From contig JAMPHT010000015.1 of assembly GCA_023663285.1 (NCBI GenBank), forward strand, positions 1 through 54,661: a stretch of 54,661 bases of DNA. The letters run 5' to 3'. The DNA comes from Bacillota bacterium. GTDB lineage: Bacteria; Bacillota; Clostridia; Lachnospirales; Lachnospiraceae. Positions 34,664 to 54,353 of this stretch are shown in pieces (the first letter of the stretch is position 1; each line of letters begins with the position of its first letter). The translations under genes were made by a program, and so were the position numbers. The notes under the pieces are model-generated. The model had not been told where the DNA came from and searched no databases. It saw only the letters and a list, made by a program, of their open reading frames with translations.

Positions 34664-34890
34664 CCCCTCTGCGTGCTTAAAGAGGGGTGCTATGCACCCT
34701 CTTATGCGTACCAATCAATATTTGAAAATTTATTTCACACTTCCAGTCATGCCTGCGCAGCAGGCACAAACAATCCATGAGAAGAATCGCTTCCCTTGCG
34801 ATTCTTCAGTGTGAGCAGGCGCTTCCTTGCGCCGTAGAATTTCTTTGCGAAATGCCCTCTGGCATGAGCATTAGAAATTCTTCTCACACT
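34664..34890 (-). repeat. Structured non-coding element, copy 1
   Basis: The 336-bp gap between the recombinase and Rpn genes holds this element instead of a gene. Read on the plus strand it contains a 23-nt hairpin unit (34682-34704), a core (34699-34756) ending ACTTCCAGTCATGCCTGC, and a GCCTGC/GCAGGC hairpin (34751-34765). After a linker AACAATCCATGA (34769-34780) come a 10-bp hairpin GAAGAATCGC/GCGATTCTTC (34781-34807) and a branched stem AGTGTGAG/CTCACACT (34808-34890) enclosing AGAATTTC/GAAATTCT. Copy 2 at 54020-54353 shares the core, the linker and most of this order. The strand given is that of the downstream gene. Confidence 0.7.
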
Positions 34891-34903
34891 TATCAGAAAA
34901 GTA

Positions 34904-34939
34904 AGACCGCCGTACAGAAATGATTCCATACGACGGTCT
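34904..34939 (-). terminator. Terminator of the Rpn-type gene
   Basis: On the minus strand AGACCGTCGT pairs with ACGGCGGTCT (10 bp including one G-U) and is followed by TACTTTT. It lies just after the Rpn stop and separates that gene from the structured element. Confidence 0.6.
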
Positions 34940-34992
34940 ATATCAGTATACTATTATATTATTATATTGTTTTTATTTATGTCCGTTGCATA

Positions 34993-35958
34993 TCACTTGC
35001 CCTTGCTGTCCAACTGAGCTGGCGGAAGAGCTGCTGTTATCCTTTGATAATAGCCTTCTGCGGCGGTCCGGCTTATTTCAAATCTTTTTACCAGCTTTGC
35101 CAGGATAATTTCCTTTCCGAAACCGCTTTCGATGTTGTCAAGAACCAGAGCTTCAATACCCCGCTTTATGCCGGCCCTCATACCCTGTTTTCTGCCACGC
35201 TTCACTCCGGTCGCTATACCCTGCTCCATACCACGCTTCACTCCGGTCGCTACTCCCCGCTCATATTCTTCCTCCCGGATAGCCTGTCTGGCAGCCTCCT
35301 CGTCATATTCATAGATACTCATGCGCTTCACCTCCGCCTTATTCGCCAAGAGAAATTTTCGCAAGATCCCTTCCCTGATGCACTCGTCCACCGCGCGATC
35401 CACTGCTTCCTCCATGCTCATGAAAGCTGCGTATCCCCTGACCCTGTCCACATACTGCATATATTCCCCCAGCGTCCGACATTGCCGCTTCAGTTCCGTA
35501 TTATAGCCCTCGTTGATATTCAGGACTAATACACGCAGATCCATCTGCGGCAGGTCCATCTGTGGGTCCGGCTGCAGAGCTCCCTCCTGTGTCCGGAAGG
35601 CATCCGAAAGCCTCATGGCCTGCTTCTCCGGCTGGGGACTCCTGCCATTATAGAATACCACAAAATGCGGGGTCGGGAGCGGGATGCGTCTGCTGCCATA
35701 TATGTTTTCCTCCGCGGAAAGCTTCCCGTACTCCTCCGTCACATACTGTAAAAACCGGAAGGGCATATTCAGGTTCACCGTGGACTGATGCTCATACAAG
35801 TACAGATGGAGATCCACCAGAAATGCCAGATCGTTTTTGACGCCCATATAGATAGCGTTCTCCAACGTCACGATCTCCAGCAGCTCCGGGTCTGTACAGC
35901 TTTTCCCGCTGACTGCGTTGTACAGCTCCAGCAGGTTCTCCTTTTCCCTGAACAGCAT
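34993..35958 (-). CDS. Rpn/PD-(D/E)XK family nuclease-type protein, probably N-terminally frameshifted
   Basis: The protein is 321 residues. It matches Rpn/PDDEXK_2-type proteins: LLELYNAVSGKSCTDPELLEIVTLENAIYMG, then KNDLAFLVDLHLYLYEHQSTVN with the ExQ part of the nuclease core. The middle reads VFYNGRSPQPEKQAMRLSDAF. The C-terminus carries repeated RGVATGVKRG-type units. Family members usually begin about 25 residues earlier. That stretch (KPQAEKKYKDTVFR) is present in frame just upstream but has no start codon. An ATG at 36036-36038 would supply it if one base were restored in the G/A run near 36022-36030. The gene may therefore be a recent pseudogene. Confidence 0.75.
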   Translation of the reverse strand: MLFREKENLLELYNAVSGKSCTDPELLEIVTLENAIYMGVKNDLAFLVDLHLYLYEHQSTVNLNMPFRFLQYVTEEYGKLSAEENIYGSRRIPLPTPHFVVFYNGRSPQPEKQAMRLSDAFRTQEGALQPDPQMDLPQMDLRVLVLNINEGYNTELKRQCRTLGEYMQYVDRVRGYAAFMSMEEAVDRAVDECIREGILRKFLLANKAEVKRMSIYEYDEEAARQAIREEEYERGVATGVKRGMEQGIATGVKRGRKQGMRAGIKRGIEALVLDNIESGFGKEIILAKLVKRFEISRTAAEGYYQRITAALPPAQLDSKGK

Positions 35959-36200
35959 CCTGAATACGGTGTCCTTGTACTTCTTTTCTGCCTGTGGCTT
36001 CGACTGTCTCTCCTGCCTGCACTTCCCCTTAGATCCATGCCTTATAAAGTGTTTTGGAATAAAAGCACAGATTTCATTGAAGTCATACAGGAGAACTCCC
36101 GGTCAGAAGCGGTCTATGCCGCCAGAGATTCAAAGAATATATGCTTTGCATTTATCTTACCAGAATAAATATATTATTGCAATACATTTTTCTCAAAAAA

Positions 36201-37055
36201 TCAAATCCTGTTGCTCAACTCCGCAAACTGCTCCAGCGTCAATGCCTCGCCGCGAATCATGGGCGGAAGATCCATTTCCTCCAGCACGGCCAGTACGCGT
36301 TCCTTTGAAATTCCAAGCTCCGGCGCGTTTCCCAGCCCGTTTACCAGCGTCTTGCGGCGCTGGCCAAAGGACGCCCTGATAAGAGAGAACATTTTGCCTT
36401 CGTCCTCCACATAGACTGGCGGCTCAATATGCCTGGTAAGCCGGATGACTGCGCTTCCCACGCCCGGCCTGGGTATGAAGCAGTTCGGCGGCACGTTCGC
36501 CACCACCTCCGGCTTTGCATAATACTGCACCGCCAGAGAAAGCGCCCCGTAATCCTTTGTGCCCGGCCCCACCTGCATACGCTCCGCCACCTCCTTCTGT
36601 ACCATAACGGTAATGCTCTTCAAAGGGACGTGCTTCTCAAACAGTCCCATAATGATCGGCGTGGTGATATAATAGGGCAGATTCGCCACCACCTTCACCG
36701 GTCTGCCGCCGTTTTTAAGTTCCACGAGCTCGTTGATGTCAACCTTCAGTATGTCGTCATTCATGATCGTCACGTTGTCATAACCCGCAAGCGTCTCTTC
36801 CAGTATGGGAATCAGATTTCTGTCGATTTCCACCGCTACCACCTGTCCTGCATTTTCCGCCAGATATTGGGTCATTGTGCCGATTCCGGGGCCAATCTCC
36901 AGAACGCAGTCATCCGACCTGATCTCCGCCGCCCGAATGATCCTGTCCAGAACCGAGGTGTCGATCAGGAAATTCTGCCCAAACTTTTTCTGAAAATTGA
37001 AATTATATTTTTGAAGTATCTCTATGGTGTTACGCGGTATACCCAGCGACGCCAT
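36201..37055 (-). CDS. rsmA: 16S rRNA dimethyladenosine transferase RsmA
   Basis: A 284-residue enzyme that dimethylates A1518 and A1519 of 16S rRNA during small-subunit maturation. Key motifs are FGQNFLID near the N-terminus, SAM-binding EIGPGIGTMTQYLAE, VVAVEIDRNL, and the catalytic NLPYYITTPI. The C-terminal domain has FIPRPGVGSAVIRL and FGQRRKTLVNGL. ATG 37055 has GGGAGG seven bases upstream; the GTG two codons earlier is less likely. It lies 92 bp after the HAD gene. Unlike the erm remnant at 758-1386, all motifs are intact. Confidence 0.95.
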   Translation of the reverse strand: MASLGIPRNTIEILQKYNFNFQKKFGQNFLIDTSVLDRIIRAAEIRSDDCVLEIGPGIGTMTQYLAENAGQVVAVEIDRNLIPILEETLAGYDNVTIMNDDILKVDINELVELKNGGRPVKVVANLPYYITTPIIMGLFEKHVPLKSITVMVQKEVAERMQVGPGTKDYGALSLAVQYYAKPEVVANVPPNCFIPRPGVGSAVIRLTRHIEPPVYVEDEGKMFSLIRASFGQRRKTLVNGLGNAPELGISKERVLAVLEEMDLPPMIRGEALTLEQFAELSNRI

Positions 37056-37147
37056 CTGCACACCTCCCCTGCGCCTCGCTTTTTGCCTGCTTCCATTCTT
37101 TATCGCGACAGACGCTTTTCAACCGATTCCCTGCACCGGCGGCTGTC

Positions 37148-37792
37148 TTAAGCCTTAAAGAAGCTTAACACTTCTCCCAGATCCTTAAATATCCTTTTGC
37201 TCAGGCGGACCATTTCCTCATCCGGTGCGATCATGTCCGGCACCATCAACGGCGCCATCCCGGCGGCATAGGCGGAGCGGATCCCGTTTGGCGAATCCTC
37301 AATGGCGTATGCCTGCGCCGGTTCCACTCCTAGCTCCCTGCAGGCCATCAGGTATATATCCGGCCGGGGCTTGGAATACTCCACCATATCCCCTGTGACC
37401 ACTGCCGAAAAATACCCGCCGATCCCTGCCTGCTCCAGATGGTTCGACACGGTAGAACGCCGAGTAGAGGAAGCAAGCCCTATGAGCCAGCCTTCCTTTC
37501 GCAGCCAGGTCAGGATCTCCCTTACTCCCGGTTTCATGGGAAGCCCGTTCTTTTCTATATGATCCCAGAACCAATCCGAGGCGCGCTGCCGGAATCCCTC
37601 ATAATCGAAATCCTCCCCGTATGCCCTCATGACGATTCTTCTGCTGTCATTGGCGTTTCGGCCAATACACTGCGGAAATATTTCATCCATACCCGGCAGC
37701 CCGTCCTCCCTTGCCACCGCCAGCCAGCTGTCCTGGCAAAGACGCTCTGTGTCAAACAAAACGCCGTCCATATCAAATACGACTGCTTTCAT
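37148..37792 (-). CDS. HAD-superfamily phosphatase, beta-phosphoglucomutase-like
   Basis: A 214-residue HAD subfamily IA protein. Motif I is VVFDMDGVLFDTE (D8/D10 type), motif II lies in LASSTRRSTVSNHLEQAGI, the lysine of motif III in YSKPRPDIYL, and motif IV in AIEDSPNGIRSAYAAGM. Members hydrolyse small sugar phosphates or isomerise glucose 1-phosphate; the specificity cannot be read here. A promoter lies at 37816-37845 and the following gene is rsmA. All catalytic residues are in place. Confidence 0.9.
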   Translation of the reverse strand: MKAVVFDMDGVLFDTERLCQDSWLAVAREDGLPGMDEIFPQCIGRNANDSRRIVMRAYGEDFDYEGFRQRASDWFWDHIEKNGLPMKPGVREILTWLRKEGWLIGLASSTRRSTVSNHLEQAGIGGYFSAVVTGDMVEYSKPRPDIYLMACRELGVEPAQAYAIEDSPNGIRSAYAAGMAPLMVPDMIAPDEEMVRLSKRIFKDLGEVLSFFKA

Positions 37793-37815
37793 AATTTACT
37801 TCCCCCGTTACAGCT

Positions 37816-37845
37816 ATTGTACCACACTTTTCTCCAATCCGCCAA
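37816..37845 (-). promoter_or_regulatory. Promoter of the HAD-rsmA unit
   Basis: On the minus strand, TTGGCG (37840-37845), 18 nt, then TACAAT (37816-37821), about 25 bp before the HAD ATG. It is divergent from the ABC exporter operon. Confidence 0.5.
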
Positions 37846-37940
37846 CAGTGGCACAAACCCGCTTCCCTATTTTCGCAAAATGTGTTAGAATATTCTTCAT
37901 GCGGCAATCAGACAACAATCATTACAACGAGGGAACTATA

Positions 37941-39728
37941 ATGAGCGAAGCAAAACAGAAAAAATTATCCCTGATCCCCTATTTATGGAGCTACAAATGG
38001 CATTATCTTCTGGGCGTCATCGTACTGCTGCTGGTGGACCTGGCAAGCCTCTATATTCCACAGTACACCGGTGAGATCATCGACGGACTGACGAAGGGAA
38101 CCTTCGGCTTTGAGGGGGTAAAGCCCATCCTGCTCAAGATCCTTCTGGCAGGGCTTACCATGATGCTGGGGCGCTTCGGCTGGCGCTTTTTCATCATCGG
38201 CGCTTCCCGCGGCGTTGAATATAAAATGCGGGGCGACCTGTTTCGGCACTTGGAAACACTTTCCGCCCGCTTTTACAACAGCCACAAGACGGGGGATCTG
38301 ATGGCCCATTTCACCAACGATCTGCAGGCCATCCGTATGGCGGTGGGGATGGCGGTCATCACCACCTTTGACGCTGTGGTGATGACAGTCATGGTACTTG
38401 TCAAGATGATCGTCTATGTGGATCTCAAGCTGACCCTGCAGGCATTTATTCCCCTGATTCTGGTGGCTTTCGGCTGCTATTATTACGGCATCGAACAGAA
38501 AAAAAGGCAGACCAGGCGGCAGGAGGCATTTTCCTATCTCTCCGACAAGGCCCAGGAAAGCCTGGCAGGCATCCGGGTGCTGAAGGCTTTTGTCCAGGAG
38601 GACTCGGATTTCAGTTCCTTTGAGGCTGCCAGCAAAAACAATATGGAAAAAAATCTGGCGGTGGCAAAGCTCCAGGCGGTCTTTGGGGCGCTGCTGGATC
38701 TGGTCACCGGCTTAAGTCTCCTGCTGACTCTGGTACTCGGCGGAAAAATGGTGCTGAACGGCCAGGTATCCATCGGCCAGTTTGTGGCGTTCAACTCCTA
38801 TATCGGTATGCTGGTCTGGCCCATGATCGCCTGCGGCGACTGTGTCAACACCTTCAGCCAGGCGGCCGCCGCCTTTCACCGGGTTGCAGCCATCTTTCGG
38901 GAGGAACCGGATATCCTGGACGCGCAGTCCCCTCTTCCCACGGACTGCGAACTGCACCTGGAGGGCGATATCCGGCTGCAGGATCTGACCTTCACCTATC
39001 CGGACGGAGAGCTTCCCGTGCTGAAAAATATCGATCTGCATATCCGTCCCGGCGAGATGCTGGGTATCCTGGGCCGGACGGGAAGCGGGAAATCCTCGCT
39101 GGCAGACCTGCTGCTGCGGGTCTACGACTGCGAAAAGGGAATGCTGCTTCTGGACGGAAAGCCCATAGACGAGATCCCCTTACATATACTGCACAGGGAT
39201 ATGGCCTATGTCCCCCAGGATAATTTCCTGTTTTCCGATACTCTGGAGGAAAACATCGCCTTCGGCCTGGAGGATCGCATCCAGGAGCACCCTGAGCTGA
39301 GGGAGAGCATCCGGCAGGCGGCAAGGGACGCCTGTATCCATGACAACATCATGGATTTCCCCGACGACTATCTGACGCTGGTGGGAGAAAGGGGCGTCAC
39401 CCTGTCGGGCGGGCAGAAGCAGCGAAGCTCCATCGCCAGAGCGCTTTTGAAGGATTCCGCCGTGCTGATCCTGGACGATTCCCTGTCAGCAGTCGACACG
39501 GACACGGAGGAACAGATCCTGGAGAACCTTCTGCGTCTGCGCAAAGGAAAAACCACTATTGTTATCGCCCACCGCATTTCCACCCTGCAGAAGGCGGACC
39601 ACATTGCGGTGCTGACGGAAGGCGAACTGACAGAGTACGGCACCCACGACGAGCTGGTAGCCCTTGGCGGCTTCTATGCCCACATCAACGAAAAGCAGCA
39701 GCTGGAACAGGAATTGCAGGAGGAATAA
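37941..39728 (+). CDS. Heterodimeric ABC exporter subunit with degenerate catalytic site
   Basis: A 595-residue half-transporter. Six helices (about 20-310) precede the nucleotide-binding domain. Walker A is GRTGSGKSS, the signature is LSGGQKQRS, and Walker B reads VLILDDSLSAVD, with Asp in place of the catalytic Glu. That is the hallmark of the non-hydrolysing site in heterodimeric exporters of the BmrCD/LmrCD/TM287-288 type. ATG 37941 has GAGGGA six bases upstream; the longer frame overlaps the divergent HAD gene. The partner follows 4 bp downstream. Likely substrates are drugs or lipids. Confidence 0.92.
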   Translation: MSEAKQKKLSLIPYLWSYKWHYLLGVIVLLLVDLASLYIPQYTGEIIDGLTKGTFGFEGVKPILLKILLAGLTMMLGRFGWRFFIIGASRGVEYKMRGDLFRHLETLSARFYNSHKTGDLMAHFTNDLQAIRMAVGMAVITTFDAVVMTVMVLVKMIVYVDLKLTLQAFIPLILVAFGCYYYGIEQKKRQTRRQEAFSYLSDKAQESLAGIRVLKAFVQEDSDFSSFEAASKNNMEKNLAVAKLQAVFGALLDLVTGLSLLLTLVLGGKMVLNGQVSIGQFVAFNSYIGMLVWPMIACGDCVNTFSQAAAAFHRVAAIFREEPDILDAQSPLPTDCELHLEGDIRLQDLTFTYPDGELPVLKNIDLHIRPGEMLGILGRTGSGKSSLADLLLRVYDCEKGMLLLDGKPIDEIPLHILHRDMAYVPQDNFLFSDTLEENIAFGLEDRIQEHPELRESIRQAARDACIHDNIMDFPDDYLTLVGERGVTLSGGQKQRSSIARALLKDSAVLILDDSLSAVDTDTEEQILENLLRLRKGKTTIVIAHRISTLQKADHIAVLTEGELTEYGTHDELVALGGFYAHINEKQQLEQELQEE

Positions 39729-39732
39729 GATC

Positions 39733-41499
39733 ATGCAGGAAGATAAGATAGAATCCAATTACAGAGGAAGCGTTCTGTTTCGCCTCCTCTCCTATATGAA
39801 GCCTTATCTCGGCTGGGTAACGCTCTGTCTGATAATGGTATTGGGGCTGACGGCCCTGGAGCTGTACCGCCCCATTCTGATCGGCGACGCCATCGACCTG
39901 TTCAAGGAGCAGGGGGATTATGCTGTGATTGAGGAAACCGCCATAAAATACGGCATTGTGCTGGTCTTAAGCTTCTTTTTCACCGTGGTCCCCATATGGC
40001 TGCTGCAGAAAACCGGACAGCGGATCATTCATGCCGTCCGCAAAGAGCTTTACTCCCATATCCAGCACCTAAGCAGCCGGTACTTTGACCTGACTCCCGT
40101 GGGAAAGCTGGTGACCAGAGTCACCAACGACGTGGAGGCGTTGAACGAGATGTACTCCGGCATTCTGGTCCGCCTGTTCCGGAACATTGTAAAGATCATA
40201 GGGCTTGCCGTGGTCATGCTGATAATGGACTGGAAGCTGGCGCTGATCTCTTTCATCCTGCTGCCGGTTGTCGTCCTGCTGACCGTAGTATTCAGGGAGA
40301 TCTCCAGAAGGACCTACCGTATCACCAGGACACGCCTCACCGACCTGAATACTTTCCTGTCGGAAAATCTTTCCGGTATGCGAATCATTCAGCTTTTTGG
40401 GCGTGAGGAAAGAAAGTTCGAGGAATTCAACGACAAAAACTATAAATATTACAGGGCCTTTTATCGTGAGATGCTGGTATTCGCCATCTTCCGGCCTCTG
40501 ATATATATTCTCAGCATCCTGTCCCTGATGCTGGTGCTGGGCATGGGCAGCCGGGATGTTCTGGGTGAGATCATCCCCATCGGCACCCTGTATATTTTTG
40601 TACAGTATATCCAATCCTTTTTTGACCCCATTCAGGAGCTGGCGGAGCAGTTTTCCACTCTCCAGTCCTCCCTTGCCTCCGGCGAAAAGATCTTTACCAT
40701 CATGGATGAGGACGCGCTGGTGCCCGAAGCGGAGGAACCTGTGGTCCTCCCTGAGATCAGGGGGCGTATCGAATTCGATCATGTGTGGTTTGCCTATGAC
40801 GATGAGAATTATGTGCTGCGGGATGTGTCCTTCGTCATTGAGCCGGGGCAGAGCGTTGCCTTTGTAGGCGCTACCGGCGCAGGCAAATCCTCCATCCTGA
40901 ATCTTATCGGCAGATACTACGATATTCAGAAAGGGCACATTTATATCGACGGCGTGGATATCAGAGACTTAAGCAAGAAACAGCTGCGCAGCGCCATCGG
41001 GCAGATGCAGCAGGACGTCTTTATCTTTGAGGGAACGGTGGAGAGCAATATCAAGCTTTACAATGAAGAGCTCACCTCGGAGGAGATCCGGGCGGCGGCA
41101 GAGTACGTCAACGCCTCCCACTTTATCGAAAAGCTGCCGGAGGGCTATAGAGAGCCTGTGTCCGAGCGGGGCTCCACCTTCTCCGCAGGGGAACGCCAGC
41201 TTCTGTCCTTCGCCCGGACGCTGGCACACAAGCCAAGCATCCTGGTCATGGACGAGGCCACCGCCAACATTGACACGGAGACGGAACTGCTCATCCAGGA
41301 AGCCCTGGAAAAGCTGATGAAGGGCCGCACCACTATCATGGTAGCCCACAGACTTTCCACTATCCAACACGCGGACTGCATCATGGTGATGCACAAGGGC
41401 AAGCTCCGGGAGCGTGGCACCCATCAGGAGCTGCTGGCTCAGAACGGCATTTACAAAAAGCTGTATGAGCTGCAGATACACCACGAGATAACGGCGTGA
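39733..41499 (+). CDS. Heterodimeric ABC exporter subunit with complete Walker B
   Basis: A 588-residue half-transporter and partner of the upstream subunit. Six helices are followed by the nucleotide-binding domain: Walker A GATGAGKSS, Walker B ILVMDEATANID with catalytic Glu, and H-loop MVAHRLST. Its signature reads FSAGERQL instead of LSGGQ, a deviation that pairs with the partner's degenerate Walker B to form the inactive site. The ATG has GGAGG nine bases upstream, inside the end of the previous gene. The stop lies in a 12-bp stem-loop. Confidence 0.92.
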   Translation: MQEDKIESNYRGSVLFRLLSYMKPYLGWVTLCLIMVLGLTALELYRPILIGDAIDLFKEQGDYAVIEETAIKYGIVLVLSFFFTVVPIWLLQKTGQRIIHAVRKELYSHIQHLSSRYFDLTPVGKLVTRVTNDVEALNEMYSGILVRLFRNIVKIIGLAVVMLIMDWKLALISFILLPVVVLLTVVFREISRRTYRITRTRLTDLNTFLSENLSGMRIIQLFGREERKFEEFNDKNYKYYRAFYREMLVFAIFRPLIYILSILSLMLVLGMGSRDVLGEIIPIGTLYIFVQYIQSFFDPIQELAEQFSTLQSSLASGEKIFTIMDEDALVPEAEEPVVLPEIRGRIEFDHVWFAYDDENYVLRDVSFVIEPGQSVAFVGATGAGKSSILNLIGRYYDIQKGHIYIDGVDIRDLSKKQLRSAIGQMQQDVFIFEGTVESNIKLYNEELTSEEIRAAAEYVNASHFIEKLPEGYREPVSERGSTFSAGERQLLSFARTLAHKPSILVMDEATANIDTETELLIQEALEKLMKGRTTIMVAHRLSTIQHADCIMVMHKGKLRERGTHQELLAQNGIYKKLYELQIHHEITA

Positions 41500-41518: not shown

Positions 41519-41565
41519 GATCTGACTACGGTATCCGACATCGGAACGATCCACGGTCAGTCTCT

Positions 41566-46923: not shown

Positions 46924-46927
46924 ACTG

Positions 46928-48679
46928 TCAAATCGTCCTTTCCACGCCGATCAGCTCCCTGCACCGATTCAGGGCCGCATACAGCTCCTGCTTCCGGGGC
47001 ATGGCAAGATTACCGGGAACGGAACCCCCGTCGCCGCCTTCACCGCTCCGTCCCTGACTGCCTCCGCAAAAGACTCCGAAGCCTTTCTCACTGATACGGC
47101 TGTACATATTCTCCACCGCTTCTCCCAATGTCCTTTTGCCGTCAAAGTCGTGGAGCTTCATATTTTTGATCATATATGACAGTGCTGTCAGCTGCTCCGG
47201 ATCCACCAGCTGCTCCACATACCGCAGATCCACTTCCTCCCGGTTGATGGAAAAACCGTCCAGACCGTCCGTCCGCATCTTGATACGGTCGTCCTTGGCA
47301 AAGGCTGCGTCCCGTCTGACTACCCGGTGAAAATCCGGTTTTCCTGCACTGACAGCGTCCCCCAGGGTATAGGGATAGCTCTCCGCTTCCTTTTTCGCAA
47401 GCTCCGTGATCTCCACGGGCTGATATTTATTCATCTGCACAATGCAGTCTGATTTATGGAAATAGGAACCGCAGCTTCCCGCCACCAATATAGTGGAAAT
47501 GCCGTACTTCTCATACAACTCCCGCACTCTGTCAATAAAGGGAATGATAGGTTCCACATCCCGGCTCACCACCCTCTGCATCAGTTCATCCCGAATCATG
47601 AAGTTTGTGGCGCTGGTATCCTCGTCGATGAGAAATACGCCCGCTCCCGCCTCCATGGCCTCCACCGTGTTTGCCGCCTGAGAGGTACTGCCGCTGGCGT
47701 CCTCAGTGTAAAAGGCAGACGTATCCCTGCCGTTGGGCAGATTGCGGATAAACATGGAGATGTCCGTCTTTTGGATGCTTCTGCCGTCCTCCGCCCGCAG
47801 CTTCATTGCAGTCTCGTCCGTGATCACATACTCTCTGCCGTCCCCGGCGATATGATCATACACTCCCAGCTCCAGAGCCTCCAGCAGGGTGGATTTACCG
47901 TGGTAGCCGCCGCCCACGATCAGGGTCACTCCCTTTTTGACGCCCATTCCCGCCAGCTTTCCGTGATGGGGCAGCTCCAGGACCACCTCCATGGACGCCG
48001 GGCTCTTAAAGGCAACCGCATCCTTCATGGGCAGGGATGAAACCCCCGATTTTCTGGGCAGGACTGCGCCGTTTGCCACAAATGCCACCAAATCCCGCTT
48101 CTTCAGTTCCTCCCGAATATACTGCTGATCGTCCGCCAGGAACAGCACTTTTTCCAGACCTTCCTTTGGACAGGTAGACGCCAGCAGGGTCTGCCTCACG
48201 CACAGGGGCAGGAAGTCAAATAGGATCTTACTCAGCTCTCCTGCGTTGATGGTGCGCCCGTTGGCGGGAAAGCCTATCTCCATGCGGACGGTCAGGTCTC
48301 CGTTTGCCGTGTTCACCGTACAGGCGCTGCGCTCCAGTATCTCCTGTCCCGGATGACTGACGCCCAGAAGGCCGCTCTTGCCGGAGCCTTTTGCCTTAAA
48401 GGAATAATCCTTGATCTTCACTGCCACCCGGCGCAGCAGGAAATCCTGAAACGCTATTCTTCTGACATTACTGTCATAACATTTCCCGTCAAAGCCCGCC
48501 ACCTTTCCGGGCACAAGAATGCTGACCTTGGATGGTGCGGCAAAGGGATCCCCCTGCACATGGTCTATTGACAATATGTATTGTTGAAACTGATATTTTC
48601 CTCTTGTGTCCTTGTACGCGGGATAGCCCTTATGGTCTATCTGCCGCAGCAGTGTCTGCAGATCAGCCGCTGTTTTCAT
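46928..48679 (-). CDS. Predicted ATPase of the ABC class (ABC_ATPase family)
   Basis: A 583-residue cytosolic protein. The N-terminus (MKTAADLQTLLRQIDHKGYPAYKDTRGKY) and the long N-terminal domain match the ABC_ATPase (DUF2791-type) family. The P-loop is IVGGGYHGKSTLLEAL, and the later region has FLIDEDTSATNFMIRD, a Walker-B-like DED, then STILVAGSCGSYF. Family members lack known transport partners. ATG 48679 is chosen by family start; a longer frame reaches 48739. The promoter is at 48807-48834. MATE and PHP genes follow in the same direction. Confidence 0.85.
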   Translation of the reverse strand: MKTAADLQTLLRQIDHKGYPAYKDTRGKYQFQQYILSIDHVQGDPFAAPSKVSILVPGKVAGFDGKCYDSNVRRIAFQDFLLRRVAVKIKDYSFKAKGSGKSGLLGVSHPGQEILERSACTVNTANGDLTVRMEIGFPANGRTINAGELSKILFDFLPLCVRQTLLASTCPKEGLEKVLFLADDQQYIREELKKRDLVAFVANGAVLPRKSGVSSLPMKDAVAFKSPASMEVVLELPHHGKLAGMGVKKGVTLIVGGGYHGKSTLLEALELGVYDHIAGDGREYVITDETAMKLRAEDGRSIQKTDISMFIRNLPNGRDTSAFYTEDASGSTSQAANTVEAMEAGAGVFLIDEDTSATNFMIRDELMQRVVSRDVEPIIPFIDRVRELYEKYGISTILVAGSCGSYFHKSDCIVQMNKYQPVEITELAKKEAESYPYTLGDAVSAGKPDFHRVVRRDAAFAKDDRIKMRTDGLDGFSINREEVDLRYVEQLVDPEQLTALSYMIKNMKLHDFDGKRTLGEAVENMYSRISEKGFGVFCGGSQGRSGEGGDGGSVPGNLAMPRKQELYAALNRCRELIGVERTI

Positions 48680-48806
48680 ATCTGTGATTCCGCCTTTCCT
48701 TACCTTAATTCCCGCGAGCAAAATGTGTCTTTCAGACATATGTGCTTCTCAAGCACATTGTACTCTGCATCGCATCTTGCCTGATGTCCCGTATGCTCCA
48801 TTTACT

Positions 48807-48834
48807 ATTTTAATCCGTTTTGAAAAAGTGTCAA
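48807..48834 (-). promoter_or_regulatory. Promoter of the ABC-class ATPase/MATE/PHP operon
   Basis: On the minus strand, TTGACA (48829-48834), 16 nt, then TAAAAT (48807-48812). It lies between the stop of the glycan-binding-type gene and the ATPase start. Confidence 0.6.
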
Positions 48835-48842
48835 GAAAACAA

Positions 48843-49694
48843 CTAATGCCTGTCAGGTACATTCCCAAAATCAACCACGATTCCGGTGATACAGGTATCT
48901 TCATACATGGTTCCGGGATATACCTCCTCTATTACAAATTTAAAAGTCACTTCCTCCCCGTTCGCCACCCTGATATCACCCTGAGGTATGGTAAAATATT
49001 GAGGATCTATGGTATCCTCAAGCGCAAGGCGGGCATAGGGCTGATCATAAACATACATCATAAGAGTTTTTACCCTGCCGTTCTCCTGCCAGGTCTTTTC
49101 ATTTTTAGCGTAGCCGTTCACGATACAAAGCCGCGTATAATCTATATATCCATTGTCACCATAAGCGCCTGCCCTGAAAATGCAATCTCCGTCGGACTCT
49201 ATCAGGTCCTCGGCAAACACAGTCTGCGTATAGACGATATACTCCCCGATCCCTGCGCCTTCTGCTCCCTCCACCCATGCAAATTCTCTGTTCCCACGGA
49301 TGGCGTTATCGGCACAGTAGCGGTCTGAAGCAGAAGCCAGCTCCGACGAAGCGGCTGCCTGATTCTTAAAGTCCCAGACATGGCACCACTTGCTGCAGCC
49401 AATTGACTGCCAATCTACAAAACCGAAATTAGGCGCATCCGGCGCTTCCTCAAAGCTGTTGAACCTTTCGTCCTCCCAATCATCATATGTGCCGCCAAGC
49501 TTCCCGTAAAAAAAGCTTCCGATCTCCGGCGTCAGGAGCAATGGCTCTGAAGGCACATTAATCTGCGTTGTCAAAGACGCTTCCGCCTGCAATCCGGTAA
49601 ACGCCGCGCTGATATCATTGATGGTATCAGCGATCAATTCCAAAATGAAAGCCATACATATGCTGATAAGCCGTATTCCCATGATTTTGACCAT
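48843..49694 (-). CDS. Membrane-anchored protein with NADase-type glycan-binding (discoidin-like) domain
   Basis: The protein is 283 residues. An N-terminal hydrophobic segment (MGIRLISICMAFILELIAD) serves as signal or anchor. Residues about 60-110 contain repeated aromatic/acidic motifs, and the C-terminal half matches the domain known beside NADase proteins: AASSELASASDRYCADNAIRG, FAWVEGAEGAGIGEYI. Such domains are beta-sandwiches thought to bind glycans at the cell surface. It is monocistronic, divergent from the second MATE gene. The ligand is unknown. Confidence 0.7.
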   Translation of the reverse strand: MVKIMGIRLISICMAFILELIADTINDISAAFTGLQAEASLTTQINVPSEPLLLTPEIGSFFYGKLGGTYDDWEDERFNSFEEAPDAPNFGFVDWQSIGCSKWCHVWDFKNQAAASSELASASDRYCADNAIRGNREFAWVEGAEGAGIGEYIVYTQTVFAEDLIESDGDCIFRAGAYGDNGYIDYTRLCIVNGYAKNEKTWQENGRVKTLMMYVYDQPYARLALEDTIDPQYFTIPQGDIRVANGEEVTFKFVIEEVYPGTMYEDTCITGIVVDFGNVPDRH

Positions 49695-49839
49695 TTACCT
49701 TTCTTTTTCACTGTTAATATTATATTAGCATACTTTCCGATTTCGTCAATTGACTTAAAAAACGGAAGTTGTAATTCTACATGACCTAATGTAAAATGGA
49801 ATGCAGCGTTTATTCAGAAGCGAAAAGGAGTACTATGAC

Positions 49840-51186
49840 ATGGCGTCCCATATCAAAAGCATGACCGAGGGGAGACCCGGCAGATTGATATTGACCTTTG
49901 CGCTGCCGCTTATGGCAGGCAATGTGTTCCAGCAGCTATATACCGTGGTGGATACCGCCGTGGTGGGAAAATATCTTGGTGTCAACGCCCTGGCGGCTCT
50001 GGGCGCCGCCGACTGGCTGAACTGGATGATGCTGGGAATCATTCAGGGCTTCACCCAGGGCTTTGCCATCCTCATGGCGCAGGAATTCGGCGCAGGACGC
50101 CATGCAAGGCTCCGAAGGGTCATCGGAAGCTCCGGTATTCTCTCAGCCGCCTTCGCCCTTCTGCTGATGGCTGCAGGACAGCTGATTGCAAGACCTGTCC
50201 TTCTCCTGCTGCAGACCCCGGAGGCTATCATAGGGGACACTCTGTTGTATCTTCGCATCATGTTTCTGGGCATTCCCATTGTGATGGCTTACAACCTTTT
50301 TGCCTGCATCCTGCGCTCTCTTGGAGACGGGCGGACGCCCCTGTATGCCATGGTGGCAGCGTCTCTTTCCAACATTGTCCTGGATCTGCTCTTTGTCATG
50401 GTCTTTGAATGGGGCATTGCAGGCGCTGCGGCCGCCACCCTGATTGCCCAACTTATATCCGGCGTTTACTGCCTGTACCATATCTCCAGGATCGAGATCA
50501 TGCGGTTTACAAAAGAGGATTTCCGGCCGGAGAGCGGTCTGTCCGGAAAGCTCTTAGGGCTGGGCTTCCCCATGGCTTTCCAGAACTGTATCATTGCCAT
50601 CGGCGGCATGATCGTACAGTTTGTGGTCAACGGCTTCGGCGTCATCTTTATCGCCGGATTTACCGCCACCAACAAGCTTTACGGCCTGCTGGAAATTGCC
50701 GCCACCTCCTACGGCTACGCCATGATCACCTATGTGGGGCAGAATATGGGCGCAGGAAAAACAGAACGCATCCACAAAGGAATGCGCTCTGCCGTGATCC
50801 TTGCTCTGGTCACCTCCGTCTGCATCGGCGCTGTCATGCTGATCCTCGGCAGACTGATCTTAAGCTGCTTTATCTCCGGTACGCCGGAGGAGGTGGAGCA
50901 GACTATAAAGATTGCCTATTTCTATCTGACGATCATGAGCGTCTGTCTGCCCATTTTATACATCCTGCACGTGGTCCGCTCCGCCATACAGGGCATGGGC
51001 AACACCCTGCTTCCCATGCTGTCCGGCATTGCGGAATTTGTCATGCGCACCTCCACAGCTCTGCTGCTGCCCCTGGCAGTGGGTGAAACAGGCATCTTTT
51101 TCGCGGAGATCGCCGCTTGGCTGGGGGCTGACATTATACTGGTCATCAGCTATTTTGTGACCGTCAAAAAGCTTCCAGCAGCTTAA
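49840..51186 (+). CDS. MATE family efflux transporter (second copy)
   Basis: A 448-residue, 12-helix MATE transporter. The start region reads RLILTFALPLMAGNVFQQLYTVVDTAVVGKYLG and the second half begins LSGKLLGLGFPMAFQNCIIAIGG. ATG 49840 with GGAG nine bases upstream is chosen over 49801, which lacks an RBS. Its 3' end overlaps the 3' end of the convergent DUF4153 gene by 23 bp. It is only distantly similar to the MATE at 45541-46923, so it is a different subgroup and not a recent duplicate. A -35-like TTGACT at 49750-49755 overlaps the divergent -35. Confidence 0.92.
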   Translation: MASHIKSMTEGRPGRLILTFALPLMAGNVFQQLYTVVDTAVVGKYLGVNALAALGAADWLNWMMLGIIQGFTQGFAILMAQEFGAGRHARLRRVIGSSGILSAAFALLLMAAGQLIARPVLLLLQTPEAIIGDTLLYLRIMFLGIPIVMAYNLFACILRSLGDGRTPLYAMVAASLSNIVLDLLFVMVFEWGIAGAAAATLIAQLISGVYCLYHISRIEIMRFTKEDFRPESGLSGKLLGLGFPMAFQNCIIAIGGMIVQFVVNGFGVIFIAGFTATNKLYGLLEIAATSYGYAMITYVGQNMGAGKTERIHKGMRSAVILALVTSVCIGAVMLILGRLILSCFISGTPEEVEQTIKIAYFYLTIMSVCLPILYILHVVRSAIQGMGNTLLPMLSGIAEFVMRTSTALLLPLAVGETGIFFAEIAAWLGADIILVISYFVTVKKLPAA

Positions 51187-52825
51187 GGCAGCGGTATCTG
51201 GACAGATTAAAGGTACGCACCCCAAGCCCTTTCGTCCGGTCCTGCATCCTCTCCATCCAATAATATCCAAAGGTATTCGCCTGCCCCCTGCCTGTATATC
51301 CGTCATTGATTTTCAGGCCATATTCCACAGGCGTTTCTTCTGCCGCCCAGGCTTCCATGGCATAGCCATGCTCCTTCATGTAGGGTGCCAGGACCGGGGC
51401 CGCATCGGCGCACAGGCCGCTCAGATATCGATAGTCAGGATACCCCGTTTCAGGATTTCCTCTTTCCCCCTCCGCAACGGCATTTTCCACGTTCACTCTG
51501 GCAATGATGTAATCCGGATGAGCGAAGGACAGAGCCAGATACAGCACCGTTACCACTGCCACGCTGTAACGGAACAGGGGAAAGCCGGCCTTAAAAACAT
51601 TGATAAGCACCCCTACAAACAGCACCGCCAGCAAGGCCAGCGCCCACAGCACCAGCACCCGCAGAAAGGTCAGATAATAGCTTCTGATATACAGTACCAT
51701 GCGCATGGCGCTGGAAGCTATCATAACAAAGGTGCAAACTGACATAATTGTCAGAATCGTCTTTAACACCTTACTTTCCCTGAAATAATACAGGCACACC
51801 AGCACGATCACAAGATTCAGAAAGCTCACTGTCAGCAGCTGGAAAAATCCTTCCCTGGCATAGGAAGCATAGGTATAGCCCTCCGGCAGCTGCAGCCTGC
51901 CCAGAAACAGTCCCTCGATCTGGACCACGGAAAACACCAGATACAGCGCCGTCAACATCCCTGTCACAGTGATCGCCGGTATAGGCTCCCCTGTTCTTTT
52001 ATCCTTTACCTCCTCCTGAAGCCTCTTTCTGCACAGCCGGGCGGTGAGACAATAGGACGCCAGGAACATAAAGGTAATGCGGAAAACCACATTCATGGTA
52101 TTGCCTATGCTGATATTCCCCAATAGGCCGTCCGTCATCCGGCGGAACAGAACATCCGCGCTGGCCAGGAGCATCAGCACCACAAACACCAGTGGCACCC
52201 CTACCAGAAGCCCAAGCCCCACGGCCCAAATGCGCCTGTCACCCTTCCCCTTGCCGCTTCTTCTATACAGGGCAGCATCCTGAAAAGGTCTTGCCACCTC
52301 CCCAAAAGCCCCAAAGGTAAGATAAAAAATGCTGTGCAGGAATTTCCCCAGGCCCCATTTTGAAGTGTCAAAATACTGCTTCAGCAGCAGACTCATCATC
52401 AACAGAAAAATGCCCAGCTTGTTGAAAAAAATGATCCTGCCGTCATCTGTGCAAAAGGTGGAAACGCCCAGCAAAATCATTGCCGCCATGTAAAAGACGC
52501 TTCCTTTTTTTAAGGTAGTCTCCAGCTTTGCAAGCGATAAGTACAAAAACAAGAGGCTGCCTGCCACGAAAAAAGGGAATGTCACCCCCGATCCGTTCCG
52601 GTACATACAAAAGGCGTAAAACACCGCATAGATAAAAGCCGCCGGACCGAAAAAGCCGAAATTATCCTTCAGACGCCTGGTCTCCTCCGTTTCCTTTTCA
52701 GTTCCCGGCCTTTCCTTCGCTGTTCCCTGCCCGTCGATCACCTGCATCTGCGGCTTATCCTTCTCATTTTCCGAATTTCCGCCCGTTCCCGGCTCCGCCC
52801 AGATATTTTGTTCTGTTCCTGCCAT
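51164..52825 (-). CDS. DUF4153/DUF4173-type polytopic membrane protein
   Basis: A 553-residue protein. A hydrophilic, Glu/Lys-rich N-terminus of about 60 residues precedes roughly 11-12 helices, and about 110 soluble residues follow at the C-terminus. The segment ADVLFRRMTDGLLGNISIG and the later EGYTYASYAREGFFQLLTVSFLNL match DUF4153/DUF4173 proteins. ATG 52825 has GGAGG eight bases upstream. It is the last gene of the DUF2975-XRE-lipoprotein operon. The function is unknown in the family. Confidence 0.8.
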   Translation of the reverse strand: MAGTEQNIWAEPGTGGNSENEKDKPQMQVIDGQGTAKERPGTEKETEETRRLKDNFGFFGPAAFIYAVFYAFCMYRNGSGVTFPFFVAGSLLFLYLSLAKLETTLKKGSVFYMAAMILLGVSTFCTDDGRIIFFNKLGIFLLMMSLLLKQYFDTSKWGLGKFLHSIFYLTFGAFGEVARPFQDAALYRRSGKGKGDRRIWAVGLGLLVGVPLVFVVLMLLASADVLFRRMTDGLLGNISIGNTMNVVFRITFMFLASYCLTARLCRKRLQEEVKDKRTGEPIPAITVTGMLTALYLVFSVVQIEGLFLGRLQLPEGYTYASYAREGFFQLLTVSFLNLVIVLVCLYYFRESKVLKTILTIMSVCTFVMIASSAMRMVLYIRSYYLTFLRVLVLWALALLAVLFVGVLINVFKAGFPLFRYSVAVVTVLYLALSFAHPDYIIARVNVENAVAEGERGNPETGYPDYRYLSGLCADAAPVLAPYMKEHGYAMEAWAAEETPVEYGLKINDGYTGRGQANTFGYYWMERMQDRTKGLGVRTFNLSRYRCLKLLEAF

Positions 52826-52847
52826 GTCCGGCACCTCCCTTGCTTTC

Positions 52848-53222
52848 TTATTTGTTCCAGTCGTATTCCGATTCCATGCCCTCCGGTATATCAGTGACAT
52901 TTATTTCTTTCCACAGCATTGCACCACCGTCCACAGTCAAATAGTTAGCGATCCATTCAGCCGTGGAATAATCTTTATATTCACATACTCTGTTGTCCAT
53001 CTCTCCGTCAACATAGCCAATTTGTGTTCCGCAATCGTTCTTGGAAACCGCGCAGAACGGCACATAAGTCCTGCCTTCCCACACAATAGCGCAATATTCA
53101 TCATTCACAACCGTACTCATGTCCACTAAATCATCTGCAAGATTCTGCTTTCTGCCGCAGGCACACAACATGATCAGCATAAAGCTGCACAGACAGATCA
53201 TTCTGCAAACTCGTTTTTTCAT
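52848..53222 (-). CDS. Small lipoprotein
   Basis: A 124-residue lipoprotein. The signal peptide (MKKRVCRMICLCSFMLIMLCAC) ends in a lipobox LCAC, so Cys22 would be lipidated and the protein anchored outside the membrane. The mature part has MSTVVNDEYCAIVWEGRTYVPFC, with paired cysteines, and no recognised domain. Its ATG overlaps the XRE stop (ATGA) and it precedes the DUF4153 gene by 22 bp, so it belongs to that operon. Confidence 0.8.
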   Translation of the reverse strand: MKKRVCRMICLCSFMLIMLCACGRKQNLADDLVDMSTVVNDEYCAIVWEGRTYVPFCAVSKNDCGTQIGYVDGEMDNRVCEYKDYSTAEWIANYLTVDGGAMLWKEINVTDIPEGMESEYDWNK

Positions 53223-53458
53223 GACTGAATACCTCCATCATCGTCTTTCTCTACATCCTCCACGTACTCCAGAATATCTCCCGGCTGACAGTTCAGCGCC
53301 TTACAGATTGCCTCCAGCCTGGAAAAACGCACTGCCCTGGCCTTGTTATTTTTTAAGATGGACAGATTGGCAAGGGTTATGTCCACCTCGGCCGCAAGGT
53401 CAGTGAGGCTCATTTTCCGCTTTGCCATCATTACATCCAGATTTACAACGATTCCCAT
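53219..53458 (-). CDS. XRE-family helix-turn-helix regulator
   Basis: A 79-residue single-domain Cro/CI-type regulator: MMAKRKMSLTDLAAEVDITLANLSILKNNKARAVRFSRLEAICKALNCQPGDILEY. This short YozG-type form is usually encoded beside a DUF2975 membrane protein, as here (8 bp apart). It probably represses or autoregulates its own operon; the promoter at 54372-54400 and the long leader lie upstream. The RBS is GGAGG. Confidence 0.9.
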   Translation of the reverse strand: MGIVVNLDVMMAKRKMSLTDLAAEVDITLANLSILKNNKARAVRFSRLEAICKALNCQPGDILEYVEDVEKDDDGGIQS

Positions 53459-53466
53459 GGCCCCTC

Positions 53467-53997
53467 CTATACCGTCCAGTCCGTTTCTTCTTTGTATGCC
53501 ACTGCCTGCTCAAACACAAAGCTCAGCACCTTGCTGAACAACCCGGCAATCACAAATACCAGGATCACCACGCCCATGGCCGGCGTCATGTACACAATGC
53601 TCCTGACTACCGACATCAGGGCAATGAAAAAGCTCCAGTTACCCATTTTCTGCAAACTGACCACATTTTCTCTGACAAAGCAGTTCTCCGCCAGCACCGT
53701 CCTGAAAATTTTCCGCAGCTCCCAGAGCAGCTTCTCCGCCGCAATGCCCAGCACAAAATAGATGATCACCGACTCCTCGTAGTGCCGGATAAGGTCCGGC
53801 AGCTGCTGCCCGATCCACCTGATGCTCCAGGGCAGGGAGACCGTCACCAGGATTCCACCGTAAAACATGAAGTCCAGAAGGTATTTTGTTCCTTTTGTCC
53901 ATATCGTATCGCGGTTCTCTGCTTTTTCGTGCTTTTCTGCTTTTTCGCATTTCCCTGCTTTTTCCCGCTTTTCTGCTTCCCCGTCTCTTTTCACCAT
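53467..53997 (-). CDS. DUF2975-type membrane protein
   Basis: A 176-residue protein. The N-terminal about 30 residues are Lys/Glu repeats (EKREKAGKCEKAEKHEKAE), encoded by short imperfect DNA repeats. Then come about four helices typical of DUF2975 (DFMFYGGILVTVSLPWSI, SVIIYFVLGIAAEKLLWELRKIFRTVL, NWSFFIALMSVVRSIVYM, MGVVILVFVIAGLFSKVLSF). It is the first gene of the operon, with AAGGAGG upstream. Its predicted mRNA leader of about 365 nt consists largely of structured element copy 2. Confidence 0.8.
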   Translation of the reverse strand: MVKRDGEAEKREKAGKCEKAEKHEKAENRDTIWTKGTKYLLDFMFYGGILVTVSLPWSIRWIGQQLPDLIRHYEESVIIYFVLGIAAEKLLWELRKIFRTVLAENCFVRENVVSLQKMGNWSFFIALMSVVRSIVYMTPAMGVVILVFVIAGLFSKVLSFVFEQAVAYKEETDWTV

Positions 53998-54019
53998 TAC
54001 ACCTCCTTACCTGCTTTAG

Positions 54020-54353
54020 CACGCCTACCAATAATATTTAGAAGTTTACTTCCAAACTTACACCTCCTCTTACGCGTGCCAAGCAATATTTTGAAAATTT
54101 ATTTTTATACTTCCAGTCATGCCTGCACAAAGAGGTGTGTTATACACCCTCTTTGAGGTGTGTTATACGCCCTCTTTGAGGTGGGCTATGCCCCCTCTTG
54201 GGCACATACAATAGAATCAAAAGGCTGATTCTATTGTCAAGAACAATCAATGAACCGCCGCCAAATCGGAAGAATCCGCCCTGCGGATTCTTCTCGGAAT
54301 GATTAGATATTCTTAGGTCCGGTCCTTTCTGACCTTAGAATATCTTCATTCCG
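54020..54353 (-). repeat. Structured non-coding element, copy 2
   Basis: This is the main content of the 564-bp stretch without a gene between DUF2975 (53997) and the flavodoxin stub (54562). On the plus strand it contains a shortened core copy (54020-54054), a full core (54067-54126), three 23-nt hairpin units (54132-54200) and a perfect 12-bp dyad ACAATAGAATCA/TGATTCTATTGT (54208-54237). Then come the linker AACAATCAATGA (54242-54253), an 11-bp hairpin GAAGAATCCGC/GCGGATTCTTC (54269-54293) and a long stem CGGAATGA/TCATTCCG (54295-54353) enclosing AGATATTCT/AGAATATCT and GGTC/GACC. The core and linker match copy 1 at 34664-34890. A minus-strand promoter at 54372-54400 would transcribe it. 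Confidence 0.7.
54132..54200. repeat. Three tandem 23-nt hairpin units
   Basis: Each unit starts GAGG and ends CCTCTT plus one base. The inner stems read GTGT/ACAC, GTGT/ACGC and GGGC/GCCC around TAT or TTAT. A fourth unit at 34682-34704 in element copy 1 has GTGC/GCAC. Substitutions occur on both sides of the stem, so pairing is kept. Confidence 0.85.

What the first reader, a model, noticed from the sequence alone, without database searches (positions are those of the whole stretch)
34664..54353. Two copies of an undescribed-looking structured element with conserved order of modules
Seen directly: 34664-34890 and 54020-54353 share a roughly 60-nt core (ending ACTTCCAGTCATGCCTGC in both), a 12-nt linker (AACAATCCATGA / AACAATCAATGA), then a GAAGAATC hairpin, then a long closing stem. 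The closing stems differ in sequence (AGTGTGAG/CTCACACT against CGGAATGA/TCATTCCG) but both are 8 bp, and each encloses an inner stem of 8-9 bp built on AGAAT/ATTCT. A dyad also sits between core and linker in both copies. Conserved order and pairing with diverged stem sequence suggest selection on structure: a regulatory RNA, or a mobile palindromic element. I recognise no Rfam-type family, but could not search.
Basis: partly seen in the sequence, partly recalled or inferred. Interest (0 to 1): 0.85.

Follow-up and report, generated by a model that had tools for sequence, protein, structure and literature searches.

The report
Mobile hairpin repeats at gene ends
Some gut bacteria of the Lachnospiraceae carry dozens of short, hairpin-built repeats per genome that sit mostly at the stop codons of genes, often supplying the stop codon themselves, and the papers searched here describe no such family.

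Summary
The two window copies belong to a dispersed, modular repeat family: at least 72 clusters of matching sequence in the window's own genome. A covariance model of its first stem-loop hits 41 of 61 genomes of the genus and 27 of 299 genomes (26 of 298 genera) of the family; one of the five hit genomes in a 391-genome class sample lies outside the family. Stems covary strongly, with almost no G-U pairs. Nearly all copies are in gene-sense orientation. Of 73 stem-loops sense to a called upstream gene, 35 begin within 3 nt of its stop codon and 28 supply the stop. Choice among AAG sites would put 17% at the stop; 35 of 45 were there. Empty sites, a tandem duplication and hairpin swaps show lineage-specific gain and remodelling. 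Some hairpins nest in others' loops after AAG; a leader module puts a Shine-Dalgarno-like sequence before start codons. Best reading: non-autonomous mobile repeats, REP-like in behaviour but not GTAG-tagged REPs; mobiliser unknown. An RNA effect is plausible but untested.

The parts
34808..34890 (-). Copy 1, A-type first stem-loop: closing stem 34883-34890/34808-34815, inner 9-bp stem, two nested hairpins
   Evidence: R1 hit 34891-34808, E 1e-5
34781..34807 (-). Copy 1, second hairpin GAAGAATCGC..GCGATTCTTC
34739..34780 (-). Copy 1, linker and GGCATGACTGGAAGT core (right end; AAG at the junction with the leader module)
34664..34738 (-). Copy 1, leader module with a nested D-type hairpin and AGAGGGG (Shine-Dalgarno-like) just before the resolvase start codon (gene 34048-34656, minus strand)
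54295..54353 (-). Copy 2, F-type first stem-loop: closing stem CGGAATGA/TCATTCCG and inner stem AGATATTCT/AGAATATCT
   Evidence: R1 hit 54353-54296, E 1.1e-10
54269..54293 (-). Copy 2, second hairpin GAAGAATCCGC..GCGGATTCTTC
54242..54253 (-). Copy 2, linker AACAATCAATGA (as read on the plus strand)
54210..54235 (-). Copy 2, E-type hairpin AATAGAATCA..TGATTCTATT
54132..54200 (-). Copy 2, three tandem D-type hairpins, 23-nt period
   Evidence: (family D9)
54109..54126 (-). Copy 2, core right end GCAGGCATGACTGGAAGT
54020..54108 (-). Copy 2, leader-type sequence up to the start of the DUF2975 gene (53467-53997, minus strand)

Best explanation
The two loci are copies of a family of short (about 60-330 nt), non-autonomous mobile repeats made of interchangeable hairpin modules, spread patchily through the Lachnospiraceae. 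SHOWN: copies are dispersed and, at the three junctions tested, lineage-specific; the stem-loops covary; the left edge of the unit is usually AAG or TAG; in one empty-site pair and one tandem duplication AAG stands at both ends; two kinds of small hairpin (D, S) lie after AAG, several inside the loops of larger ones; nearly all copies are in gene-sense orientation with the first stem-loop starting at the upstream stop codon or supplying it; some copies end in a leader module with a Shine-Dalgarno-like sequence right before the next start codon. INFERRED: the unit moves as a single-stranded DNA hairpin cut next to AAG/TAG, by an enzyme I could not identify; insertions persist at stop codons because the unit carries stop codons in two frames at its left end. 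INFERRED and weaker: once transcribed, the stem-loop at the stop codon acts as stop-proximal REPs are said to act in E. coli, on ribosome release and decay from the 3' end, and so tunes the upstream gene.
For: Dispersal: 47 and 48 matches in the own genome with copies 1 and 2 as queries, 72 merged clusters; model R1: 62 hits in the own genome, 41 of 61 genus genomes, 27 of 299 family genomes. Gain: the fakA-recG gap of the own genome has a full element right after fakA's TAA, while G036 (91% identical protein) has none and keeps the terminator-like hairpin downstream; by reading, 2 of 30 loci carry element sequence there, one of them only a partial core (gene names). fabF end: 1 of 30 loci; pgsA end: 1 of the 14 (of 30) loci in which that end was recovered. 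C15 versus L163: the two genes overlap in L163 and are separated in the own genome by an element that supplies the stop. Two genomes, 93-99% identical in the aligned pieces, differ by a tandem duplication of a 152-bp unit, presence/absence of a first stem-loop, and module replacements. Structure: 32 cells with both-sided changes versus 8.7 in shuffles, 0 of 500 as high. Pairing at DNA level: 3 G-U of 1275 arm pairs; in 53 hits of the wider set 9 G-U versus 44 mismatches in outer plus inner stems. Orientation: 55 sense versus 3 antisense among 58 clusters lying between two codirectional genes; 73 of 75 stem-loops sense to the upstream gene; 43 of 47 in the wider set; 23 of 25 in G068 stretches; 12 of 13 in own-genome stretches. 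Stop anchoring: of 73, 35 stops at -1..3 nt of the left edge, 28 inside the element, 10 further upstream; AAG-availability control 17% expected, 35 of 45 observed, p 3e-19. Left edge: AAG 20 and TAG 13 of 46. Nesting after AAG: D 38 of 39 (the AG is imposed by the pattern), S 5 of 5. Leader: 17 of 17 sense to the next gene, 10 with the start codon 29-31 nt downstream.
Against: No mobilising enzyme found: Y1 transposases (PF01797) are absent in element-rich G001 and G036, and model-positive genomes are 11 of 21 Y1-positive against 30 of 40 Y1-negative. No live excision or insertion was seen; duplication and hairpin loss could be recombination or slippage. AAG at both ends rests on one empty-site pair and one duplication. 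The AAG rule does not hold for all small hairpins: the C hairpin follows CTC in 12 of 15 and the E hairpin follows GAC in 6 of 6. Sense orientation is confounded with the leading strand: all 23 sense hits in G068 lie on the GC-skew leading strand and the 2 antisense ones do not; own-genome stretches give no clear lagging-strand sense case. Copy 1 itself is an exception: its stem-loop starts 101 nt after the upstream stop. One genus copy lies 2 nt after a tRNA gene, not a stop codon (L364). The RNA effect has no data.
Confidence: 0.6

Rival explanations
1. Selected cis-acting mRNA element: the repeats are kept because a stem-loop at the stop codon and a Shine-Dalgarno leader regulate expression between genes; spread is secondary.
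For: Stop-codon anchoring beyond AAG availability, sense orientation, leader module at a fixed distance from start codons in 10 of 17, stable predicted folds. By analogy E. coli REPs within 15 nt of a stop are reported to stall ribosomes (passages of PMC12306157).
Against: Insertions at the three operon junctions tested are lineage-specific; G-U pairs are nearly absent, whereas they are often seen in GTAG REPs, which was taken there as a sign of RNA function (PMC3733652 section 5). Whether the flanking genes share a function was not tested.
Confidence: 0.2
2. No transposase: hairpins spread and diversify by replication template switching, slippage and gene conversion between palindromes, with purifying selection leaving them at gene ends.
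For: Presence/absence of a single stem-loop and repeat-flanked indels between close genomes; near-perfect Watson-Crick arms, as palindrome correction would give; no enzyme found; C and E hairpins do not follow AAG.
Against: New unlinked locations, e.g. the fakA, fabF and pgsA ends, with a mostly constant left edge [AT]AG, are hard to get without a cut-and-join step.
Confidence: 0.12
3. True REPIN/RAYT-type or IS200/IS605-derived elements mobilised by a Y1 transposase.
For: Imperfect hairpin next to a short cut-site-like motif ([AT]AG), and a strong strand bias compatible with insertion into the lagging-strand template (the IS200/IS605 mechanism is recalled).
Against: GTAG tag in only 4 of 46; no association with PF01797. 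Head-head dimers, usual in many REP families, were not looked for systematically.
Confidence: 0.08

Closest known systems
GTAG- and CGTC-tagged REPs / REPINs with RAYTs (PMC3733652: abstract, sections 5 and 15 read; REPIN paper PMC3116915: passages seen)
   Same: Dispersed, hairpin-forming, non-coding, many copies per genome; near 3' ends of genes; GTAG REP termini often supply the TAG stop; short unpaired tag at the hairpin base; families and subfamilies differ by complementary stem changes.
   Different: Here the tag is mostly [AT]AG (GTAG 4 of 46); the first stem-loop alone is 63-121 nt, its short forms with a nearly constant A.A mismatch and an AAARNAC-like loop (reading); G-U pairs are nearly absent; copies are mostly gene-sense; modules nest; no Y1 link. 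The word starts Clostridi, Firmicutes, Roseburia and Butyrivibrio do not occur in that paper's main text.
BOX, RUP and SPRITE repeats of Streptococcus pneumoniae (PMC3049150, passages seen)
   Same: Modular, tandemly repeatable boxes, insertion into one another, predicted RNA stem-loops, insertions changing ORF ends.
   Different: They are over-represented between convergent genes; this family sits mainly between codirectional genes, sense-oriented, at the stop codon. No sequence comparison was run.
Stop-proximal REPs in E. coli (PMC12306157, passages seen; the original study it cites was not read)
   Same: Hairpin close to the stop codon; possible effect on ribosomes and the upstream gene.
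   Different: There 446 of 4,072 predicted REPs (260 of 496 in the cited study) lie within 15 nt of a stop; here 35 of 73 lie within 3 nt and 28 of 73 provide the stop.
Small dispersed repeats of Nostoc (recalled) and repetitive hairpin elements of sponge mitochondria (PMC2800124, search listing only)
   Same: Very small hairpin units; the Nostoc ones, as recalled, insert into one another.
   Different: No stop-codon anchoring is known to me; unrelated hosts; no sequence comparison run.

Membership tests
GTAG-tagged REP | GTAG motif at the hairpin base | tested here: not met
   GTAG 4 of 46; AAG 20 and TAG 13 of 46 (3 of the 49 hits near contig ends were left out)
GTAG-tagged REP | 20-40 bp palindrome | tested here: not met
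   stem-loops of 63-121 nt apart from three pattern matches of 164-202 nt; whole copies up to about 330 nt
GTAG-tagged REP | location close to the 3' end of genes, some supplying stops | tested here: met
REPIN/RAYT | associated Y1 transposase in the genome | tested here: not met
   PF01797 in 21 of 61 genomes; model-positive 11 of 21 with it and 30 of 40 without; many genomes are incomplete
REPIN/RAYT | inverted (head-head) doublets | not tested
   no systematic count was made
MITE | terminal inverted repeats matching a resident IS, with target-site duplication | tested here: inconclusive
   AAG at both ends in the fakA empty-site pair and in the G001/G085 tandem duplication; no parent IS was sought beyond PF01797
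Rfam RNA family | score above the gathering threshold | tested here: not met
   0 matches in the window to 4227 models; only the window was scanned
BOX element | boxA-boxB-boxC sequences | not tested
   only genome position was contrasted with the paper's passages
Intrinsic terminator | G+C-rich hairpin followed by a U tract | tested here: not met
   (34600-35050): the one minus-strand terminator-like site is 34939-34904, upstream of copy 1's stem-loop, not the stem-loop itself; other copies only by reading

The most novel reading that the evidence does not exclude
A new class of mobile intercistronic cassette: it brings a stop codon at one end and, in its long forms, a ribosome-binding site at the other, so it can enter operon junctions without breaking either gene. 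Loops of its hairpins carry the AAG landing motif, so modules nest recursively and generate ever new hairpin combinations, driven by a hitherto unknown enzyme acting on AAG/TAG in single-stranded DNA.
Probability: 0.28. Interest if true: 0.88.

Novelty: new variant of a known kind. Interest (0 to 1): 0.7.

Why it matters
With 62 model hits in the own genome and 86 in G068, the repeats rewrite the ends of housekeeping genes: in the own genome a ketoacyl synthase (FabF-like), argininosuccinate lyase and a CDP-alcohol phosphatidyltransferase (PgsA-like) end in element-encoded residues or use its stop. They also change operon junctions in common gut bacteria. The strict stop-codon placement makes it testable whether a repeat is targeted to, or only tolerated at, translation stops, and whether stop-proximal hairpins tune expression in Firmicutes. 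The unknown mobiliser is a lead to a DNA-processing enzyme. Unannotated copies can mislead C-terminus and start calls and may break assemblies: contigs C10, C16, C40 and C80 begin or end at copies.

Tried and rejected
Attempted and rejected. (1) A two-copy structured RNA: rejected by 72 clusters. (2) A Y1/RAYT mobiliser by genome association: no association. (3) Spread on phages: the exact A-type pattern AGTGTGAGAAGAANNTCTAA had 0 matches in viral contigs; no wider search was made. (4) The resolvase beside copy 1 (34048-34656, PF00239) and the Transposase_31-like neighbour (34993-35958, below Pfam's cut-off) as mobilisers: not supported by anything seen, not tested systematically. (5) Separating gene sense from replication strand on 375 kb of G068 and 354 kb of the own genome: the two are confounded. 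(6) AAG availability as the cause of stop anchoring: rejected. (7) Intrinsic terminator: the scan of the copy 1 region marks only the hairpin upstream of it. (8) All-against-all comparison of loci (its output was cut): mostly fakA-locus pairs, but it gave the close pair G001/G085. Literature: searches and 93 of an open-licence library listed no paper on such a family; subscription journals and preprints are not covered, and a review on MITEs was seen in passages only.

Caveats on counts. The A/F set comes from patterns that fix the left edge and bias the outer right arm; inner right arms were nearly free. It holds orthologous pairs from G001/G085, so its 78 members are not all independent. The wider set covers 49 of the 58 loci L335-L392; L361-L364 and L386-L390 were left out. 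Two searches scored 40 candidates, at most 87, 17 and 13 per genome, so copy numbers are lower bounds; the number of sampled class genomes outside the family was not shown. The gene caller is my own codon-usage script, and deep in-element stops may partly be its artefacts. Junction counts were made by reading at most the first 170-600 nt shown. In one search, 25 of 37 rows and, 13 of 14 rows were used; I took the rest to be opposite-strand readings of the same palindromes. An earlier count gave 36 of 43 for stop proximity in the wider set; the recount is 32 of 43 within -4..+10 nt, and that entry's 46 with a called upstream gene should be 47.
Full report
WHAT IS THERE. Both reported places are real and read most sensibly on the minus strand, that of their flanking genes. 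In that direction copy 1 runs from the first stem-loop (34890-34808) through a second hairpin (34807-34781), a linker and the core GGCATGACTGGAAGT (34780-34739) to a leader module (34738-34664) that ends in AGAGGGG just before a resolvase gene (PF00239, E 1.6e-27). Copy 2 starts with another stem-loop type (54353-54295), then the second hairpin, linker, an AATAGAATCA hairpin, three tandem 23-nt hairpins, the core and leader-type sequence before a DUF2975 gene. Rfam has no match in the window at gathering scores.

HOW MANY. Copy 1 as query finds 47 matches in the window's own genome and copy 2 finds 48; the fetched surroundings merge into 72 clusters. A covariance model (R1) built from 15 short stem-loops finds exactly the two window places, 62 hits in the own genome and hits in 41 of 61 genomes of the genus, up to 86 in G068. 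It hits 27 of 299 genomes and 26 of 298 genera of the family. In a class-wide sample it hits 5 of 391 genomes: two of the genus, two more of the family and one (G687) of another family. The two G687 hits lie 7.6 kb apart on one contig; the genes between and beside them look like those of a mobile element (antitoxin/toxin-like pair, SSB-like and pilus-type genes: my reading, no family search), so transfer is possible. An exact scan of the species-genome collection with GGCATGACNGGAAGTGTGA gave 75 stretches: 59 titles name Lachnospiraceae or one of its genera, 9 only 'bacterium', 2 Clostridiaceae and 5 other groups; by my estimate 18 fixed letters give about 7 chance hits.

STRUCTURE. On alignment A1 the pairs show 32 cells changed on both sides against 8.7 in shuffles, 0 of 500 as high, and 88.9% of cells paired against at most 50.6% for slid partners. 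In 75 stem-loops (3 of 78 left out for length) the outer and inner arms hold 1229 Watson-Crick pairs, 43 mismatches and 3 G-U. In the 53 best-scoring rows of the wider set (of 83; lower ones are mostly opposite-strand readings) the outer and inner stems hold 832 Watson-Crick, 44 mismatched and 9 G-U pairs. A single transition in a pair gives G-U about half the time, so this lack of G-U argues against ordinary RNA selection and for pairing that matters, or is corrected, as DNA; that is inference. The short form reads: outer stem, AGNNNNTCTAAG, short apical stem with a loop like AAARNAC, CTAAGANNNNCT, outer stem, with a nearly constant A.A mismatch (reading).

WHERE COPIES SIT. With my codon-usage gene caller, 62 of the 72 own-genome clusters have both neighbours called: 55 lie sense between two genes, 3 antisense to both, 2 between convergent and 2 between divergent genes. 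The three antisense clusters show no first stem-loop in the stretch printed. Of 78 distinct first stem-loops from many genomes, 75 have a called upstream gene and 73 are in its sense; relative to the left edge AAG the stop codon ends at -1..3 nt in 35, is the element's own TGA at 8 nt in 15, lies deeper in the element in 13, and lies 8-114 nt upstream in 10. In the wider set of 49 hits, 47 have a called upstream gene, 43 are sense, and of these 21 stops are at 0..3 nt, 13 inside the element, 2 at 3-4 nt upstream and 7 further upstream. In 354 element-free codirectional gaps, 153 of 918 AAG (or stop-TAG) sites are at -1..3 of the stop, so 35 of 45 copies with a host stop there is far from chance (p 3e-19). 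The argininosuccinate lyase and FabF-like proteins of the own genome end in residues encoded by the element, and the PgsA-like gene uses its stop. Copy 1 is an exception (stop 101 nt upstream, with a terminator-like hairpin in between); copy 2's upstream gene is beyond the contig end. One genus relative has a stem-loop starting 2 nt after a tRNA-Asn gene (L364), so the anchor may be the end of a transcript unit more broadly.

GAIN, LOSS AND REMODELLING. At the fakA-recG junction the own genome has GGAATAAG, the element, then GAAGGTTAC; G036 has GGAATAAGTTTAC without it; 2 of 30 loci carry element sequence there, one only a partial core. At the fabF end 1 of 30, and at the pgsA end 1 of the 14 recovered (of 30), carry the stem-loop. 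C15 versus L163 shows an element separating two genes that overlap in the other species. C90 versus L115 shows one site occupied in both species, with the outer stem kept and the inner hairpin exchanged. G001 and G085, 93-99% identical in the aligned pieces, differ by a tandem duplication of a 152-bp unit joined as GGGAAGTGTGAG, by presence or absence of a stem-loop, and by module replacements. Among small hairpins, D follows AAG in 38 of 39 cases (AG imposed by the pattern), in loops of several different modules, and S in 5 of 5; C (12 of 15 after CTC) and E (6 of 6 after GAC) do not. The leader module is sense to the next gene in 17 of 17 with a called gene (18 found); the start codon is 29-31 nt on in 10, 44-52 nt in 3, and further in 4.

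MECHANISM. I take the copies as non-autonomous mobile DNA. Shown: dispersal, lineage-specific sites, covarying stems, a mostly [AT]AG edge (AAG 20, TAG 13 of 46; in 22 G068 hits AAG 14, TAG 5), nesting, stop anchoring. Inferred: a single-stranded hairpin intermediate and an enzyme cutting at AAG/TAG. Y1 transposases are not associated. Against simple insertion-and-tolerance stands the excess at the stop over other AAG sites in like gaps, which calls for targeting or for selection on a stop-proximal hairpin. Against a simple RNA function stand the lineage-specific sites and the missing G-U. Gene sense cannot be separated from the leading strand here.

COMPARISON. The nearest described kind is the REP class. 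GTAG REPs also lie within about 20 bp of 3' ends and supply TAG stops, but have a GTAG tag, 20-40 bp size, G-U pairs often observed and mostly inverted dimers in many families (PMC3733652, abstract and sections 5 and 15). This family fails the tag and size tests and shows no Y1 link, so I do not file it as a REP, though it behaves like one. E. coli REPs within 15 nt of stops are said to stall ribosomes (passages of PMC12306157), the model for the possible RNA effect. BOX, RUP and SPRITE share modularity and nesting but are over-represented between convergent genes (PMC3049150 passages). No description of the present family was listed by the searches named under Tried and rejected.

VERDICT. 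A real, numerous and striking repeat family, a new variant of the small interspersed palindromic repeats, with an open and testable question about its mobiliser and about why it sits on stop codons. On checking, the main odds went from 0.62 to 0.60 and the novel case from 0.30 to 0.28, because the C and E hairpins do not follow AAG.

Noticed in passing
34904-34939 (-): A 16-pair terminator-like hairpin with a T-rich tail lies between the Transposase_31-like gene and copy 1, so copy 1 may be transcribed only by read-through or with the resolvase gene.
   Followed up: partly
L050, L051, L058, L059 and other loci: The leader module also occurs in genomes with few first stem-loops: a second, start-codon-anchored repeat with a Shine-Dalgarno-like sequence.
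   Followed up: partly
L364: tRNA-Asn 1427-1499, stem-loop from 1501: A genus relative (G066) has a related stem-loop directly after a tRNA gene, so anchoring may extend to RNA genes.
   Followed up: partly
L447 (G687:C11:28000-46000): Two copies lie on a stretch with mobile-type genes in a genome of another family, a possible transfer route.
   Followed up: partly
54354-54661: The contig ends about 300 nt beyond copy 2; own-genome contigs C10, C16, C40 and C80 begin or end at copies, suggesting that these repeats break assemblies.
   Followed up: no
32435-32967: Five direct repeats with 69-nt spacing lie inside the gene 32291-33409 (-).
   Followed up: no
L341: Genome G071 carries a tandem array of the first stem-loop (five minus-strand hits).
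   Followed up: no
L215 (G000:C23:16323-16702): The own genome's Y1 transposase matches are two adjacent pieces in different frames, so the gene looks decayed.
   Followed up: no
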